In this document: in pieces, positions 10,224 to 60,975 of the stretch
How the letters are laid out: the number at the start of each line of letters is the position of its first letter
Numbering within the stretch: position 1 is the stretch's first letter
Source of the DNA: Candidatus Gastranaerophilales bacterium
Lineage (GTDB): Bacteria > Cyanobacteriota > Vampirovibrionia > Gastranaerophilales > Gastranaerophilaceae
DNA length: 64,000 bases
Direction: 5' to 3'
NCBI GenBank assembly: GCA_944322725.1
Contig: CALUPU010000001.1
Location: forward strand, 62,001 to 126,000
Notes under the pieces: model-generated
The model's input: only the letters and a program-made list of their open reading frames with translations
Database searches by the model: none
Told to the model about the DNA's origin: nothing
Translations under genes and position numbers: made by a program

Positions 10224-10358
10224 AATATTCCTTCAATCCCTATTGTTACATAATAATAGCAAAAAAATATCTGCAATATACGCTTTTAAGGCAATAATTT
10301 AGAGAAATCTGTTTTTATATATATAGCAAAACACGAAAAAATGAGTTAAAATAATACA

Positions 10359-10535
10359 ATGGACAAAGTGGTTGATATAACGAAAGTATTAAAGAAAACA
10401 GGCAATGACGTTGAAGAAAAAGCGCCTCAAAAGCCTGTTGTCAATAAAACAACCAATCCGATTTTAAAAAAACTTGCAAAGTTTAAAAATGACAATTTGT
10501 CCAAAAAGTTCGATATAAATGACCTTTTAAGATAA
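10359..10535 (+). CDS. Small basic protein, 58 residues, unknown
   Basis: ATG at 10359; the product starts MDKVVDITKVLKK and ends KFDINDLLR. It is Lys-rich with no signal or membrane segment. No Shine-Dalgarno is visible. TAAAAT (10347-10352) ends 6 nt before the ATG, suggesting a leaderless transcript. It is the first gene of a probable operon: 6 nt separate it from the next gene, which overlaps prmC. Family not recognised. Confidence 0.55.
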   Translation: MDKVVDITKVLKKTGNDVEEKAPQKPVVNKTTNPILKKLAKFKNDNLSKKFDINDLLR

Positions 10536-15222: not shown

Positions 15223-15591
15223 ATGTTTTCAAGAGGAATCAGAGGCGCAATTACTGTAGATGAAGATTCGCAGGACTTACTTGAAAAAGCGGCTGTCGAA
15301 CTTTATTCTAAAATGATTGAAGCAAACAGTGTAAACACAGAAGATATCTCTCATATAATTTTTACAATGACAAAAGACCTAAAGAGTGCTTTCCCTGCAA
15401 AGTTTATAAGAAGAAATTTTAAAATTCAGTATGTTCCCCTTTTATGTGTGAATGAGATGGATATCGAACCGAGTTTGAAAAAATGCCTGCGTATTCTTAT
15501 GGTTGTAAATACAGACAAAAAACAGGATGAAATAAAGCATATCTATCTCGGTGCGACAAAGATTCTTCGTTCTGACCTTGTAAACAATTAA
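15223..15591 (+). CDS. aroH: Chorismate mutase, AroH type
   Basis: Converts chorismate to prephenate, the branch to Phe and Tyr. 122 residues of the trimeric AroH fold. 'RGIRGAITVDEDS' N-terminus with the active-site Arg, 'FTMTKDLKSAFPAKFIR', 'YVPLLCVNEMDI' and 'CLRILMVVNTD' with the catalytic Arg, and 'HIYLGATKILRSDL'. AAGGAG before the ATG, 9 nt after fmt, so it reads as the last gene of def-fmt-aroH. Its stop interlocks with the opposing gene. Confidence 0.95.
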   Translation: MFSRGIRGAITVDEDSQDLLEKAAVELYSKMIEANSVNTEDISHIIFTMTKDLKSAFPAKFIRRNFKIQYVPLLCVNEMDIEPSLKKCLRILMVVNTDKKQDEIKHIYLGATKILRSDLVNN

Positions 15592-16313
15592 TTACAAAGT
15601 TTTTTTATTTTTTCTTTGTAAAATCCTATAATATCTATCAACGCGTAGAGTGTAAGAGCGGTTATGTTTACTTCTTCTTTCCATTCATTGTACGAACATT
15701 TTTCCGGCAGAGCAACAAGCGGGTTGTTAGGAAAATCTCTGCATATTCCGGGTCTGTTTTCATAATCCGTACAAAGTCCGTCCTTGCCTAACTTTGGACA
15801 GTAGTAAAAATGTAGTTGTGCCTGGTCTTTAAACTTTTCTTCAAGAAGATTTATATAATCAGGATAAAGCTTTCTGGGTTCTTCAATTGACTTGTACGGT
15901 ACAAAAACAGATATAAACTCTTTAGAAAATTTATCACCGTTTTTTGCACGTTCTTTTAATTCTTCATATGAATATTCAGAACTTGCCAGCCTGCAGCATG
16001 AGGCACATCTTACGCAGGTAAAACATTGTCTTCGTTTTTCTATAAGCTGTATTTTTTCATAAATATCTTTTGATATTTTGTTCTCCAATAAATCAAGAGC
16101 AGCTTCCTGCCAGAATTTGTAGCGGCAGCCGTCAGGAAATTTCTGAAAAACATTAATCTTATTAAAATCAATGTCGCAATTTTTTTTGCAGTGATTGCAC
16201 AGAGATGCTCTTTTAAGGTTATTTATCCGTGTATCTATTGCCTTTTGCGCGTTGCTGAAAAGTTCCCTGTATATTTTAGCAGTGCTAATTATTTCATTTT
16301 GTAAGGTATTCAT
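15588..16313 (-). CDS. YkgJ-like zinc/iron-chelating domain protein
   Basis: 241 residues from ATG 16313. A longer frame to 16361 overlaps mutL and is unlikely. Cys-rich: 'CNHCKKNC' near the N-terminus, 'CFTCVRCASCCR' in the middle, then 'YCPKLGKDGLCTDYENRPGICRDFP', the hallmark of the PF03692 CxxCxxCC family of metal- or cluster-binding proteins. Biochemical role unknown. No Shine-Dalgarno; TGCTATATT ends 6 nt before the ATG, suggesting a leaderless transcript. Confidence 0.8.
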   Translation of the reverse strand: MNTLQNEIISTAKIYRELFSNAQKAIDTRINNLKRASLCNHCKKNCDIDFNKINVFQKFPDGCRYKFWQEAALDLLENKISKDIYEKIQLIEKRRQCFTCVRCASCCRLASSEYSYEELKERAKNGDKFSKEFISVFVPYKSIEEPRKLYPDYINLLEEKFKDQAQLHFYYCPKLGKDGLCTDYENRPGICRDFPNNPLVALPEKCSYNEWKEEVNITALTLYALIDIIGFYKEKIKKLCN

Positions 16314-16317
16314 CACA

Positions 16318-16352
16318 ATAATATAGCACATCCATAAGGATTGAGATAGAAT
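16318..16352. promoter_or_regulatory. Compact divergent promoter region ykgJ-like / mutL
   Basis: 46 bp separate the two start codons. Minus: extended -10 TGC-TATATT ending 6 nt before ATG 16313. Plus: TAGAAT (16347-16352) ending 7 nt before ATG 16360. Neither start has a Shine-Dalgarno, and -35 boxes are poor. Confidence 0.5.
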
Positions 16353-16359
16353 AATAAAC

Positions 16360-18150
16360 ATGGGGAAAACAGTTAAACAAAATCGTATAAATCAACTGTC
16401 TAGACAGCTTATAAACCAGATTGCAGCGGGAGAGGTTATTGAACGTCCTGCTTCTGTTGTAAAAGAACTTGTTGAAAACTCTATTGATGCCGGAGCAAAC
16501 CGTATAGAAGTTGAAATCAGTAAGGATTGCCTTTCTATCCGTGTTTCTGATAACGGGTGCGGTATTCATCCTGAGGATATAGAACTTGCTTTTTCAAAGC
16601 ATGCCACAAGCAAAATATCAAATGCTGATGACCTTTTTGATATTCATACTATGGGCTTTCGCGGTGAAGCACTGGCAAGTATCATATCTATTGCAAAAGT
16701 TGTCTGTACTACACGCACAAAGGACTTTGAAACAGGTACACGTGTTGAATGTGAAGAATCTAATGTTAAATCATCTCCTGCAGCGTGTTCAGTCGGTACC
16801 ACTATGGAGGTTAACGACCTTTTTTATAATACACCTGTTCGTCAGAAATTTTTAAAATCAGAAAGAGTAGAACTTTCATATATAGCAGAAATTTTACAAA
16901 GTATTGCAATTGCAAATCCGGATGTTTCTATTACTCTTATTAATGACGGAAAAACACCCGTAAAAACCTCGGGCAGCGGTGATTTATTGTGTGTGTTAAC
17001 AGAGATTTATTCTAACTCTATTGCCGGTGAACTTAAGAAAATAAACAAATCGGATGAACTCTCTCATCTGCATGCTTCAGGATTTTGTTCTACACCGGAA
17101 TTTACCCGTTCTACCAAAAAATCCATATATGTTTTTGTAAATAACAGAGTAGTAAAATGTCCTGTTATTCTAAAAGCAGTTGATACCGCTTACAAAAACA
17201 TGCTTCCTGCAGGCAAGTATCCGTTTGTTTGTATCAATCTTTCCATACCGGCAAATGATGTGGATGTTAACGTACACCCCACCAAAAAAGAGGTTCGATA
17301 CAAAAATCCTAACCAAATATTCAATTTTGTTTATGCCTCAATTATTGATGCACTGTCTTCGTTTAAACTTCCGGATATTCCGAAAAATGATGTAATAATA
17401 CCTTTTTGGGGCAATTATAACAGCATAAATACTTCTGAATCTGAAATCAGGCAGGATACGGAAGATGATGATACAGTTTATGTGTCAGAACAGAAATTTG
17501 AAGAAATTAAGGAAACTAATACCCGTCAGTTTGAATTAAACATAAAGCAGATTGACCTTGATATTCCCGCACCTGTTCAGGTTGAGGAAACCATTAATAT
17601 TATCGGACAATACAGGAACACTTATATTATTTTTGAAGAGAATACGGAACTCAAAATCGTTGACCAGCATATTGCTGACGAAAGATTTATCTTTGAAAAA
17701 CTGCAGGAAAACCTGAAAAAAGAAGATATTCCGTCACAGCTGCTCCTTATATCTGATATTTTGTCTCTTGAAGCTGCGGATGTTGAACTTATTATGGAAA
17801 ACAGCGAAAAACTTAAAAAATTCGGCTACGCGATAGAAAAAATATCAGATACAGAAATAATATTCAAAAAAATTCCTCAGGTTATATCGCATATTAAAGT
17901 AAGAGATATTCTTGCGGATATTTTAGAAAATTTGCACGGTGATTTGAACAATCTTGAAGAAAAAATGCTTGTTACAATGTCCTGCAAAGCTGCTGTCAAA
18001 GCAGGGGCAGAACTTAACCTGTGGCAGATGGAAGAATTGATAAAAAAATGGAAAACCACAAAAATGCCTTATACCTGCCCGCATGGACGGCCGATTGTTC
18101 ATTCGTTCAGTGAAAAAGAAATAGCTTCTTTTTTCCACAGAAATGTGTAA
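16360..18150 (+). CDS. mutL: DNA mismatch repair protein MutL (endonuclease type)
   Basis: 596 residues. N-terminal GHKL ATPase: 'QIAAGEVIERPASVVKELVEN' (split by alignment gaps in no place), 'DNGCGI', 'TMGFRGEALASI'. The C-terminal half has the latent endonuclease motif DQHI-AD-E-RFIF-E at about 435-446 (consensus DQHAX2EX4E, with A changed to I), 'SCKAAVKAG' and 'CPHGRP'. This fits bacteria without MutH. mutS is not in the window. The start lacks a Shine-Dalgarno and sits 7 nt after a -10 box. Confidence 0.95.
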   Translation: MGKTVKQNRINQLSRQLINQIAAGEVIERPASVVKELVENSIDAGANRIEVEISKDCLSIRVSDNGCGIHPEDIELAFSKHATSKISNADDLFDIHTMGFRGEALASIISIAKVVCTTRTKDFETGTRVECEESNVKSSPAACSVGTTMEVNDLFYNTPVRQKFLKSERVELSYIAEILQSIAIANPDVSITLINDGKTPVKTSGSGDLLCVLTEIYSNSIAGELKKINKSDELSHLHASGFCSTPEFTRSTKKSIYVFVNNRVVKCPVILKAVDTAYKNMLPAGKYPFVCINLSIPANDVDVNVHPTKKEVRYKNPNQIFNFVYASIIDALSSFKLPDIPKNDVIIPFWGNYNSINTSESEIRQDTEDDDTVYVSEQKFEEIKETNTRQFELNIKQIDLDIPAPVQVEETINIIGQYRNTYIIFEENTELKIVDQHIADERFIFEKLQENLKKEDIPSQLLLISDILSLEAADVELIMENSEKLKKFGYAIEKISDTEIIFKKIPQVISHIKVRDILADILENLHGDLNNLEEKMLVTMSCKAAVKAGAELNLWQMEELIKKWKTTKMPYTCPHGRPIVHSFSEKEIASFFHRNV

Positions 18151-34167: not shown

Positions 34168-34196
34168 TTGTTAAATGAATGGCATTAGATTATAAT
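34168..34196 (+). promoter_or_regulatory. Promoter for a leaderless TPR-protein transcript
   Basis: TTGTTA (34168-34173), 17-bp spacer, TATAAT (34191-34196). The ATG at 34203 is 6 nt further, at the expected +1, and no Shine-Dalgarno exists. Confidence 0.65.
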
Positions 34197-34202
34197 TTTG
34201 GT

Positions 34203-34889
34203 ATGAAAAAAATATTTTTTATTCTTATGTTTTTCGTTTTTCCTATCGTACAATCTGCATGTGCGGTACCTGTACCACAGGTATTTTCTTCGCTTAACTC
34301 TTCTGCCGATATTAAAAAAGAACCAACTGCAGCAAAAAAAGAAATACCGATTGTACAAAAAACACAGGCTCAGATTGATGCAATAAACGAATTGAGAGTA
34401 CAGGCTAAATTTCTTTATAACTCTAATAAACTCAACGAAAGTATGGAGTTATACAATAAAATTGCCGATGCAGACAAGATTTCCGATGATTGGCTTTTTC
34501 TTGCGAATATTGCTCAGGATAACGGAAAAATTGTCGATGCTGTATTTTATCTGAAAAAAGCTATAGAATGTGATGATAAAAACTACAAAGCACATTATAA
34601 TCTTGGAAATATTTATTATTCGGATAATAAAATAAATATGGCTATAAGTGAATATAATAAGGCTATAAGAATAAAAAAAGATTTTGCTTATGCATATTAC
34701 AATAAAGGGTGCTGTTATTTAAAGAAAAAAAGCTGGTATAACGCAAGGTATGAATTTGGTCTTGCAATAAAAGCAAATCCGGAAGAACCGTCATTCTACT
34801 ATAATCTGGCTTATACCAATAAAATGATGAAAAGGCATAAAAAAGCACAGGAAGCTCTGGATATGTATAATAAGCTGATGACTCAATAA
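34203..34889 (+). CDS. Secreted tetratricopeptide-repeat protein
   Basis: 228 residues from ATG 34203; an upstream ATG at 34179 lies inside the promoter and is rejected. Signal peptide (about 1-22; a Cys at the end of 'VQSAC' leaves a lipoprotein possible). A Lys/Ala-rich linker is followed by about four TPR units, e.g. 'KAHYNLGNIYYSDNKINMAI' and 'AYAYYNKGCCYLKKKSW'. TPRs mediate protein contacts; the partner is unknown. Confidence 0.8.
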   Translation: MKKIFFILMFFVFPIVQSACAVPVPQVFSSLNSSADIKKEPTAAKKEIPIVQKTQAQIDAINELRVQAKFLYNSNKLNESMELYNKIADADKISDDWLFLANIAQDNGKIVDAVFYLKKAIECDDKNYKAHYNLGNIYYSDNKINMAISEYNKAIRIKKDFAYAYYNKGCCYLKKKSWYNARYEFGLAIKANPEEPSFYYNLAYTNKMMKRHKKAQEALDMYNKLMTQ

Positions 34890-53074: not shown

Positions 53075-53932
53075 TTATGAAATAAAACAGTTAGTTGCTG
53101 TATGGATAAATTCTATGATTTGTGAAAAATATTCAAGAGATGATGCTCCGTTTATGATAATGTCAGCTTCTGACTTTGAGGGTTTTATATATTTTTCTGC
53201 TGCCGTGCATACGTAATCCCAGTGTTTTAATGCATTTTCTTCGGACTGATTTCTTTTTGAGGCACGTTCCATAAACCATTTTTTCTGGATTTTCGGGTCA
53301 ATATCAATGTATATTTTAACGTCAAATAAATCTTTAATATCCTTATACATAGCCGCCATACCTTCTACAAGGATAAATTTTTCTGATGATATAGGGATAG
53401 ATTCCGGTACGCTTATACCTGTACCGTTAATAAGGTATTCCGGTGCTTTTATATTTTCACCGTCAGAGAGTTTTGTTAAATCCTTTTTTAACAGTTCAAG
53501 CTGAAAATTTTCCGGAGAATCTACATCATAGCCGTTGTCTCTCAGTTCATCAAAAGTACCGTATTTCCTTATTAAGTCTGATATATCATTAAAGTAATTG
53601 TCGATACTGAGGTATTCCAATGGAAATTTTAAATCAGAACTTGTTTTTTTTATTTGTTTACAGATAGTTGTCTTACCGCTGGCTGACTCACCTGTCACAC
53701 CTATAAGAAATTTTTTGTTGGGATTTTCTATCAAGCGTCTTGAAAATTTTGAAATAAAATTAGGATTGATTTCTTTAAATATAGGATTTTCAGTTTTTTT
53801 GTCATAAGAGAGTATTTGTTTGAACTTAGTTTGAAGATAAAACGCGAGAAATTCTCTTCCTGTTTTGGTTGAAAAATCAGGTTTAATTATTTTGTCTTTA
53901 GAAGTGTTTTCTTTGTCAATTAACATTTGCAT
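53075..53932 (-). CDS. Uridine kinase / phosphoribulokinase-like P-loop kinase
   Basis: 285 residues. An N-terminal extension of about 70 residues precedes Walker A 'GVTGESASGKTT' (78-89). 'YLSIDNYFND' is the substrate Asp region, 'YDVDSPENFQLELL' matches the uridine kinase YDHP-like block, and 'ILVEGMAAMY' matches the EG(I/F) strand. Walker A and order fit the uridine kinase family, but the extension and divergence leave the substrate open. Monocistronic. Confidence 0.8.
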   Translation of the reverse strand: MQMLIDKENTSKDKIIKPDFSTKTGREFLAFYLQTKFKQILSYDKKTENPIFKEINPNFISKFSRRLIENPNKKFLIGVTGESASGKTTICKQIKKTSSDLKFPLEYLSIDNYFNDISDLIRKYGTFDELRDNGYDVDSPENFQLELLKKDLTKLSDGENIKAPEYLINGTGISVPESIPISSEKFILVEGMAAMYKDIKDLFDVKIYIDIDPKIQKKWFMERASKRNQSEENALKHWDYVCTAAEKYIKPSKSEADIIINGASSLEYFSQIIEFIHTATNCFIS

Positions 53933-59610: not shown

Positions 59611-59640
59611 TTGACCTGTTGCAAGTGTGTGGCCGATAAT
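59611..59640 (+). promoter_or_regulatory. glnA promoter giving a leaderless transcript
   Basis: TTGACC (59611-59616), 18-bp spacer, GATAAT (59635-59640). The ATG at 59647 lies at the expected +1; no Shine-Dalgarno. Confidence 0.7.
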
Positions 59641-59646
59641 AATATA

Positions 59647-60975
59647 ATGCTATCTGATGACCAAATTAAAGATATAATACAAAAAGAAAAGATTAAAACC
59701 ATCTACCTGCAGTTTATTGATATCAACGGCAGAATAAAAAATCTTAGTATGCCTTCTGCACAAATAGATGATATCCTGCAAAATAAAGTAATGTTTGATG
59801 GTTCATCCATAGGCGGATTCAGAGAAAATGAAACAATGGATTTAAGGTTTTTTCCTGATAAATCGACTTTTTTAACATTTCCGTTTAAATTTTCGAATTT
59901 GAAACAAACTGCTCGTTTTATTTGTGATATTCACAACGCCGACGGCACACCATTTGCAGGCTGTCCCCGTTCTAATCTAAAGCGCGTTATGGAAAATGCA
60001 AAAAAATACGGATATACTATGCAGATAGGTCCGGAGGTTGAGTTTTTCTTATTTAAAACAGATGAACAAAACAATATTCTAAATGTCGGTGCTGAGAAAA
60101 CAGGCTATTATGATGCGAATCAATCAAATAAATATGATGAAACACTTATTCTTGTGTTGACTGCACTGGAGGAAATGGGCTTTGAAATTGATGCACTTCA
60201 CCATGAAGGTGCTCCTTTCCAGCATGAAATTGATTTGGGTTATGATGATATTTTAAAAACTGCTGATAATTTAATTACTTTTAAATTTGTTACAAAGACT
60301 ATTGCTGATAACTTTGGATTCAAAGCTTCGTTTATGCCCAAACCTATATACGGACAAAACGGTTCCGGTCTGCATCTTAACATTTCCTTGTCTGATAAAA
60401 AAGGAAACAATGCTTTTTCTGATTCTACAAATATATATAAGCTTTCAGAACAGGCTTGTTATTCTATAGGTTCAATATTAAAAAATATTAAAGGTATTAC
60501 CGCTGTATTGAATCCTACAATAAACAGTTATAAACGTCTTGTAAAAGACTACGAAGCGCCTATTTATATTGTATGGTCAGTTGTAACAAGGAGTGCTCTT
60601 GTACGGATTCCTTCAAAGAGAGGCGAATCAACAAGACTGGAACTTCGGTCTCCGGATTTTGGTACTAATCCTTATCTGGCATTTGCAGTTATTCTGCAAA
60701 CATGTATGGACGGTTTAAGAAATAAGGTAGAACCGCCTTCACCAATGGAAAAGAATTTATTTTTGCTTTCAAGTAATGAGATTAAACAACGAAAGATAAA
60801 ATCTCTGCCGAGAAACCTATTTACTGCTCTTGAGGAATTTGAAAAGAGTATGGTGGCACGGGCTGCTCTGGGGGATTATATATTTAACGAATTTTTGAAT
60901 TCGAAAAGAAAAGAGTGGAATGACTACAGAAAACAGGTTACACCCTGGGAAATTAAAAAATATCTGGACATATAA
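59647..60975 (+). CDS. glnA: Glutamine synthetase, type I
   Basis: ATP + glutamate + ammonia to glutamine. 442 residues from ATG 59647, the length of GSI-alpha; the longer frame to 59584 would contain the promoter. 'MFDGSSIGGF', 'FICDIHNADGTPF', 'GPEVEFFLF', 'HHEGAPFQHEIDL', 'GSGLHLNISL', 'NPTINSYKRL' and 'RLELRSPDFGTNPYLAFA'. The adenylylation Tyr region is absent as in the alpha subtype. gltA follows: a nitrogen-assimilation pair. Confidence 0.96.
   Translation: MLSDDQIKDIIQKEKIKTIYLQFIDINGRIKNLSMPSAQIDDILQNKVMFDGSSIGGFRENETMDLRFFPDKSTFLTFPFKFSNLKQTARFICDIHNADGTPFAGCPRSNLKRVMENAKKYGYTMQIGPEVEFFLFKTDEQNNILNVGAEKTGYYDANQSNKYDETLILVLTALEEMGFEIDALHHEGAPFQHEIDLGYDDILKTADNLITFKFVTKTIADNFGFKASFMPKPIYGQNGSGLHLNISLSDKKGNNAFSDSTNIYKLSEQACYSIGSILKNIKGITAVLNPTINSYKRLVKDYEAPIYIVWSVVTRSALVRIPSKRGESTRLELRSPDFGTNPYLAFAVILQTCMDGLRNKVEPPSPMEKNLFLLSSNEIKQRKIKSLPRNLFTALEEFEKSMVARAALGDYIFNEFLNSKRKEWNDYRKQVTPWEIKKYLDI

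What the first reader, a model, noticed from the sequence alone, without database searches (positions are those of the whole stretch)
59611..59649. Leaderless transcripts as a recurring gene start type
glnA has TTGACC-18-GATAAT with its ATG exactly 6 nt after the -10. The TPR gene at 34203 has TTGTTA-17-TATAAT-6-ATG. The 58-residue gene at 10359 (TAAAAT-6-ATG), mutL (TAGAAT-7-ATG) and the YkgJ-like gene (TATATT-6-ATG) share the layout, and none has a Shine-Dalgarno, while neighbours such as rpe or the RHH gene have strong ones. The organism may use two initiation modes.
Basis: partly seen in the sequence, partly recalled or inferred. Interest (0 to 1): 0.7.

Follow-up and report, generated by a model that had tools for sequence, protein, structure and literature searches.

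The report
Leaderless gene starts in Gastranaerophilales
In this non-photosynthetic relative of cyanobacteria, a minority of genes (about 4-5% of starts above chance, including glutamine synthetase) have their promoter placed so that the RNA should begin at the start codon itself, a known way of starting genes that, in the literature searched, had not been described for this lineage.

Summary
The five promoter/ATG layouts exist exactly as described. The genome is a Candidatus Gastranaerophilales MAG. Starts were called by coding signal only (1137 starts, 1.63 Mb). A -10 hexamer (>=5/6) lies 6-7 nt before 84 starts; dinucleotide shuffles give 33.4 (SD 5.4, max 51 of 200). These -10s have a -35 preferentially at 16-18 nt, excess TGN extended -10s, and a pyrimidine at -1 (82% against 49-54%), as expected if transcription begins at the A of ATG. 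TATAAT placement is bimodal: 6-7 nt before non-SD starts, about 25-40 nt before SD starts. Conservation is decisive for three reader genes: glnA (20 species), the 58-aa gene (22) and the TPR gene (a second species) keep -10 and ATG 5-7 nt apart while the bases between drift. mutL and the YkgJ-like gene are plausible but individually unproven. Two initiation modes are therefore supported, with leaderless the minority (about 50 starts above chance) and SD at 45%; about 41% are neither. Across the phylum the TANAAT-N6-ATG excess occurs in non-photosynthetic lineages and is absent in photosystem-bearing ones. Leaderless genes are known in many bacteria: new member of a known kind. No transcript ends were available.

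The parts
59611..59616 (+). glnA promoter -35 TTGACC
   Evidence: TTGACC in 18 and TTGCAA in 2 of 20 congeneric glnA upstream regions, 17-18 nt before the -10
59635..59640 (+). glnA promoter -10 GATAAT, ending 6 nt before the ATG
   Evidence: GATAAT in 19 of 20 species, AATAAT in 1; distance to ATG 6 nt in 17, 5 in 2, 7 in 1
59647..60975 (+). glnA, type I glutamine synthetase, predicted leaderless (transcription start at the A of 59647)
   Evidence: TIGR00653 above cut-off, PF00120/PF03951; start aligned in 20 species
34168..34173 (+). TPR gene promoter -35 TTGTTA
   Evidence: identical hexamer and 17-nt spacing in G021
34191..34196 (+). TPR gene promoter -10 TATAAT
   Evidence: same hexamer and same 6-nt distance to ATGAAAAA in G021
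34203..34889 (+). TPR-repeat protein with N-terminal signal-like segment (MKKIFFILMFFVF...), predicted leaderless
   Evidence: Pfam TPR families; start supported by G021
10311..10326 (+). conserved GTTTTTATATATATAG element upstream of the 58-aa gene
   Evidence: columns -48 to -33 conserved in 17-22 of 22 species
10347..10352 (+). 58-aa gene -10 TAAAAT (within conserved GAGTTAAAAT)
   Evidence: columns -16 to -7 identical in 20-22 of 22 species, always 6 nt before ATG
10359..10535 (+). 58-aa conserved protein of unknown family, predicted leaderless
   Evidence: homologue in 22 of 23 genomes of the genus searched, this one included; no Pfam or NCBIfam hit
16347..16352 (+). mutL candidate -10 TAGAAT, 7 nt before the ATG
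   Evidence: sequence; no recognisable -35 (best 3/6); conservation not tested
16360..18150 (+). mutL; ATG 16360 is the first start codon of the open frame
   Evidence: TIGR00585 above cut-off; ORF list
16320..16325 (-). YkgJ-like gene candidate extended -10 TGCTATATT, 6 nt before the ATG
   Evidence: sequence; conservation not tested
15588..16313 (-). YkgJ-like CxxCxxCC protein, divergent from mutL (46 bp between the two ATGs)
   Evidence: PF03692

Best explanation
A minority of first genes of transcription units in this Gastranaerophilales genome are leaderless. A housekeeping (sigma-70 type) promoter places its -10 hexamer 6-7 nt before the start codon, so RNA polymerase should start at, or within one nucleotide of, the A of ATG; the ribosome would then start on a 5'-terminal AUG without a Shine-Dalgarno. 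The other promoters lie far enough upstream (about 25-40 nt from -10 to ATG) to leave a leader, with an SD in many cases. Shown here: the non-random -10/ATG spacing, its promoter signature, its conservation within the genus, and its phylum distribution. Inferred: the actual 5' ends and the mode of ribosome binding.
For: Positional peak at spacer 6-7 only and excess over shuffles. -35 >=4/6 at 16-18 nt in 35 of 82 candidates against 9-13 at other spacings; TGN extended -10 in 25 of 82 against 2-11 at other offsets. Pyrimidine at -1 in 82% against 54% and 49%, the usual initiator preference. Bimodal TATAAT placement: non-SD first genes peak at 5-9 nt (32), SD first genes at 25-39 nt (58) with 0 at 5-9. 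First-in-unit enrichment: TANNNT at 6-7 in 106/787 first against 18/333 internal genes, p 4e-5. Enrichment in short divergent gaps: 22/114 starts at <150 bp against 9/190 at 150-600 bp, p 1e-4. Conservation: glnA 20 species, 58-aa gene 22 species, TPR, 9 of 12 leaderless-type starts shared with G021, p 1e-8.
Against: No RNA data. About 40% of the 84 candidates are expected by chance. Lack of SD is partly geometric, because a -10 at -12..-7 fills the SD position. Orthologues outside the genus mostly do not keep the layout (G035 1 of 7, G061 0 of 2). ATG preference (79 of 82 against 890 of 979) is weak.
Confidence: 0.9

Rival explanations
1. Chance: -10-like hexamers are common in a 36% G+C genome and the five cases were picked by eye.
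For: Shuffles give 33 such starts in 1137, so many individual matches are expected by chance; mutL and YkgJ lack conservation tests.
Against: 84 observed against a maximum of 51 in 200 shuffles; the peak is confined to spacers 6-7; conserved in 20 and 22 species for two genes.
Confidence: 0.04
2. Very short leaders: transcription starts 1-5 nt upstream of the ATG, or slightly inside it, and translation is by an SD-independent leadered route.
For: Discriminator lengths vary between promoters; spacer 7 cases, and 5 or 7 in three glnA orthologues, allow a 1-nt leader or a start at the U.
Against: The strong T/C at -1 (82%) points to initiation at the A of ATG; spacers 8-12 show no excess.
Confidence: 0.08
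3. The hexamers are not promoters but AT-rich translation-enhancer or S1-binding sequences, as proposed for non-SD genes elsewhere.
For: S1-like proteins are encoded (matches below the rpsA cut-off); Nakagawa 2017 raises S1 binding for U-rich upstream biases.
Against: A -35 at 16-18 nt, TGN and a pyrimidine at -1 are promoter features; glnA keeps TTGACC and GATAAT while the bases between drift.
Confidence: 0.03
4. A regulator site overlaps the start codon and the true promoter is further upstream.
For: AT-rich upstream regions hold other -10-like strings; glnA and the 58-aa gene have conserved blocks upstream of the promoter region.
Against: It would not explain the same -10 spacing across unrelated genes (NAD kinase, RsgA, MnmG, RsmA, RadA), nor divergent pairs with 24 bp between ATGs.
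Confidence: 0.03

Closest known systems
Deinococcus-Thermus -10-motif adjacent to ORFs (PMC12340547; de Groot 2014 and Zheng 2011 cited therein)
   Same: TANNNT about 6-7 bp before the ORF, together with an SD class in the same genome; no strong functional bias reported there
   Different: About one third of D. radiodurans genes there against 4-5% above chance here; here the hexamer is TATAAT-like, usually with TGN or a -35
TA-led (leaderless) genes of Zheng et al. 2011 (PMC3160421)
   Same: Same signal, and same test against dinucleotide-preserving shuffles
   Different: Their list of groups with leaderless genes does not include Cyanobacteria, and they say many Cyanobacteria use neither mode
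GeneMarkS-2 leaderless class of bacterial genomes (Lomsadze 2018, as summarised in PMC9581028)
   Same: Mixed SD and leaderless genome; 21.6% of bacterial species were put in this class
   Different: Photosynthetic cyanobacteria are cited there as the example of an unknown mechanism; Gastranaerophilales is not named in the passages read

Membership tests
Bacterial leaderless (TA-led) genes | -10 hexamer about 6-7 nt before the start codon, in excess over shuffled sequence | tested here: met
   84 against 33.4 +/- 5.4; positional peak
Bacterial leaderless (TA-led) genes | Hexamer is part of a working-type promoter (-35 or extended -10, initiator) | tested here: met
   -35 at 16-18 nt in 35/82, TGN in 25/82, pyrimidine at -1 in 82%
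Bacterial leaderless (TA-led) genes | No Shine-Dalgarno at these starts | tested here: inconclusive
   SD tetramer in 1 of 59 TANAAT cases against 45% overall, but the -10 occupies the SD position, so part of this is geometric
Bacterial leaderless (TA-led) genes | Found at first genes of transcription units | tested here: met
   TANNNT 106/787 first against 18/333 internal, p 4e-5; short divergent gaps enriched
Bacterial leaderless (TA-led) genes | Layout kept by selection between species | tested here: met
   glnA 20 species, 58-aa gene 22 species, 9 of 12 orthologues in G021, TPR; not kept outside the genus in the few pairs compared
Bacterial leaderless (TA-led) genes | Transcript 5' end at the start codon | not testable with these tools
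   no RNA data held
Bacterial leaderless (TA-led) genes | Translation from a 5'-terminal AUG (70S initiation) | not testable with these tools
   needs in vitro translation or ribosome profiling

The most novel reading that the evidence does not exclude
Leaderless promoter placement is an old trait of the non-photosynthetic Cyanobacteriota lineages that the oxygenic, photosystem-bearing cyanobacteria lost or never had; Gastranaerophilales keep it beside SD initiation and use it to pack divergent genes closely.
Probability: 0.35. Interest if true: 0.55.

Novelty: new member of a known kind. Interest (0 to 1): 0.42.

Why it matters
It extends mixed SD/leaderless initiation to a gut lineage of the cyanobacterial phylum that is known almost only from metagenomes, and shows a sharp contrast with photosynthetic cyanobacteria. 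Practically, gene callers that expect an SD will misplace some starts here (the TPR start differs by 24 nt), and the conserved -10/ATG spacing gives a way to correct them and to read promoters directly from sequence.

Tried and rejected
The exact 16S 3' end could not be read for this genus, being absent from all 23 assemblies; the canonical GGCTGGATCACCTCC is present in 58 of 117 class genomes, three of them in the same family, so loss of the anti-SD was rejected as an explanation. An excess of TANNNT at spacer 0-1 is only partly explained by stop codons of upstream genes (8 of 76) and was left open. My early note that the glnA distance is exactly 6 nt in all 20 species was wrong: it is 6 in 17, 5 in 2 and 7 in 1. 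Orthologue comparison with G035, G061 and G057 shows no retention of the layout at the level of single genes. Searches for papers naming leaderless together with Melainabacteria or Gastranaerophilales found none.

Full report
What was checked. The window lies in a 1.91 Mb, 32-contig assembly. Its closest GlnA relatives in named genomes are MAGs titled Candidatus Gastranaerophilales, and the Photo_RC search shows that neither this genome nor its family carries photosystem reaction-centre proteins.

Genome-wide test. I stitched 1.63 Mb of the genome and called genes by in-frame hexamer statistics, choosing starts without any upstream motif. Among 1137 starts, TATAAT occurs 18 times at spacer 6 and 13 times at spacer 7, against about 2 per spacer from 8 to 25; TANAAT 38 and 21 against about 7; TANNNT 88 at spacer 6. 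An SD tetramer occurs at 45% of starts against 7-8% at internal or non-coding ATGs. With a >=5/6 match to TATAAT at spacer 6-7 there are 84 starts, while 200 dinucleotide-preserving shuffles give 33.4 +/- 5.4, maximum 51. The excess, about 50 starts or 4-5%, is the estimate of the leaderless class; start miscalls such as the TPR gene make it a lower bound.

Are these promoters? In the 82 candidates without SD, a -35 (>=4/6 of TTGACA) sits at 16-18 nt in 35 cases against 9-13 in other three-nucleotide windows, and TGN precedes the -10 in 25 against 2-11 at other offsets. The base before the start codon is T or C in 82%, against 54% in other non-SD and 49% in SD starts, which is the usual initiator preference if the A of ATG is +1. 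TATAAT placement is bimodal: for non-SD first genes 32 fall at 5-9 nt, for SD first genes none at 5-9 and 58 at 25-39 nt. So a promoter either abuts the ATG or leaves room for a leader.

Gene context. TANNNT at 6-7 is commoner at first genes (106/787) than internal genes (18/333, p 4e-5). Divergent starts less than 150 bp apart are of this type in 22/114 cases against 9/190 at 150-600 bp (p 1e-4). One conserved divergent pair (RsmA-like and spermidine-synthase-like) has 24 bp between its ATGs with a -10 on each strand. In the window, mutL and the YkgJ-like gene are a similar pair with 46 bp between ATGs. Genes in the class are ordinary housekeeping genes (NAD kinase, RsgA, MnmA, MnmG, LpxK, RadA-like, RarA-like, U32 peptidase).

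Conservation. glnA of this type is found in 20 of 23 genomes of the genus. All 20 have TTGACC (18) or TTGCAA (2), 17-18 nt, GATAAT (19) or AATAAT (1), then 6 nt (17), 5 (2) or 7 (1) and ATG; the six intervening bases are poorly conserved except for T at -1 (17 of 20), and one has an SD tetramer in range. A more distant GlnA (64% identical, L128) has TATAAT-6-ATG instead. The 58-aa gene has GAGTTAAAAT, 6 nt, ATG in nearly all of 22 species, with a further conserved block GTTTTTATATATATAG at -48 to -33. The TPR gene in G021 has the same TTGTTA-17-TATAAT-6-ATG although the protein has grown by more than a hundred residues. Over all start-agreeing orthologues in G021, 9 of 12 keep TANNNT at 6-7 (p 1e-8); control spacers keep fewer.

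Phylum distribution. Counting TANAAT-N6-ATG against the in-frame control TANAAT-N9-ATG in whole genomes, the family of this genome has ratios of 1.12-1.83 (median 1.56, 32 genomes tabulated), with a reversed-pattern control of 0.82-1.00. Of 57 same-phylum genomes outside the class that were screened for Photo_RC, the 18 without it total 2120 against 1521 (ratio 1.39) and the 39 with it 7126 against 7181 (0.99; Mann-Whitney p 1e-6). This is a genome-wide count, not restricted to gene starts, and genomes are not phylogenetically independent, so it is suggestive of an old split rather than a dated event. Members of another order (G057) use SD at only 21% of starts with a stronger leaderless excess, though only 101 starts were available.

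What is known. Leaderless genes marked by a -10 at about this distance are described across many bacteria (Zheng 2011, PMC3160421), strongly in Deinococcus-Thermus (PMC12340547), and GeneMarkS-2 puts 21.6% of bacterial species in such a class (PMC9581028). Zheng's groups do not include Cyanobacteria. Nakagawa 2017 (PMC5397173) cites Cyanobacteria among phyla reported with leaderless mRNAs but leaves the upstream bias unresolved. No held paper joins leaderless with Melainabacteria or Gastranaerophilales. The mechanism is therefore known; the lineage, and the contrast within the phylum, are what is new here.

Limits. There is no RNA evidence, and about 40% of individual candidates are chance matches. 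Lack of SD at these starts is partly forced by the -10 occupying that position. About 41% of starts have neither signal and their initiation is unexplained.

Noticed in passing
window 10359-10535 (+) and upstream 10311-10352: A 58-aa protein conserved in 22 of 23 genomes of the genus, with no Pfam or NCBIfam hit and two conserved upstream blocks (GTTTTTATATATATAG and GAGTTAAAAT); the promoter type may not be the ordinary sigma-70 one.
   Followed up: partly
G000:C4:155942/155967 (L048:15942 and L048:15967): Divergent RsmA-like and spermidine-synthase-like genes with only 24 bp between their ATGs and overlapping -10 boxes on both strands, kept in G021.
   Followed up: partly
window 59647-60975 and G000:C5:37472-38797: Two GlnA paralogues about 53% identical; the leaderless one was found in 20 of 23 genomes of the genus and not in other genera searched.
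   Followed up: partly
G000 genome-wide: 467 of 1137 starts have neither an SD tetramer nor a -10 near the ATG; their initiation signal is unknown.
   Followed up: no
L185-L194 (G057): A member of another order of the class uses SD tetramers at only 21% of starts although its genome has the canonical 16S 3' end GGCTGGATCACCTCC.
   Followed up: partly
G000 genome-wide: TANNNT directly abutting the start codon (spacer 0-1) is also in excess (76 and 49 of 1137); stop codons of upstream genes explain only a few.
   Followed up: partly
window 53926-53932 (-): Uridine-kinase-like gene with a double start ATGCAAATG and TATGAT 6 nt before the second ATG, kept in G021; which ATG is used is unclear.
   Followed up: no
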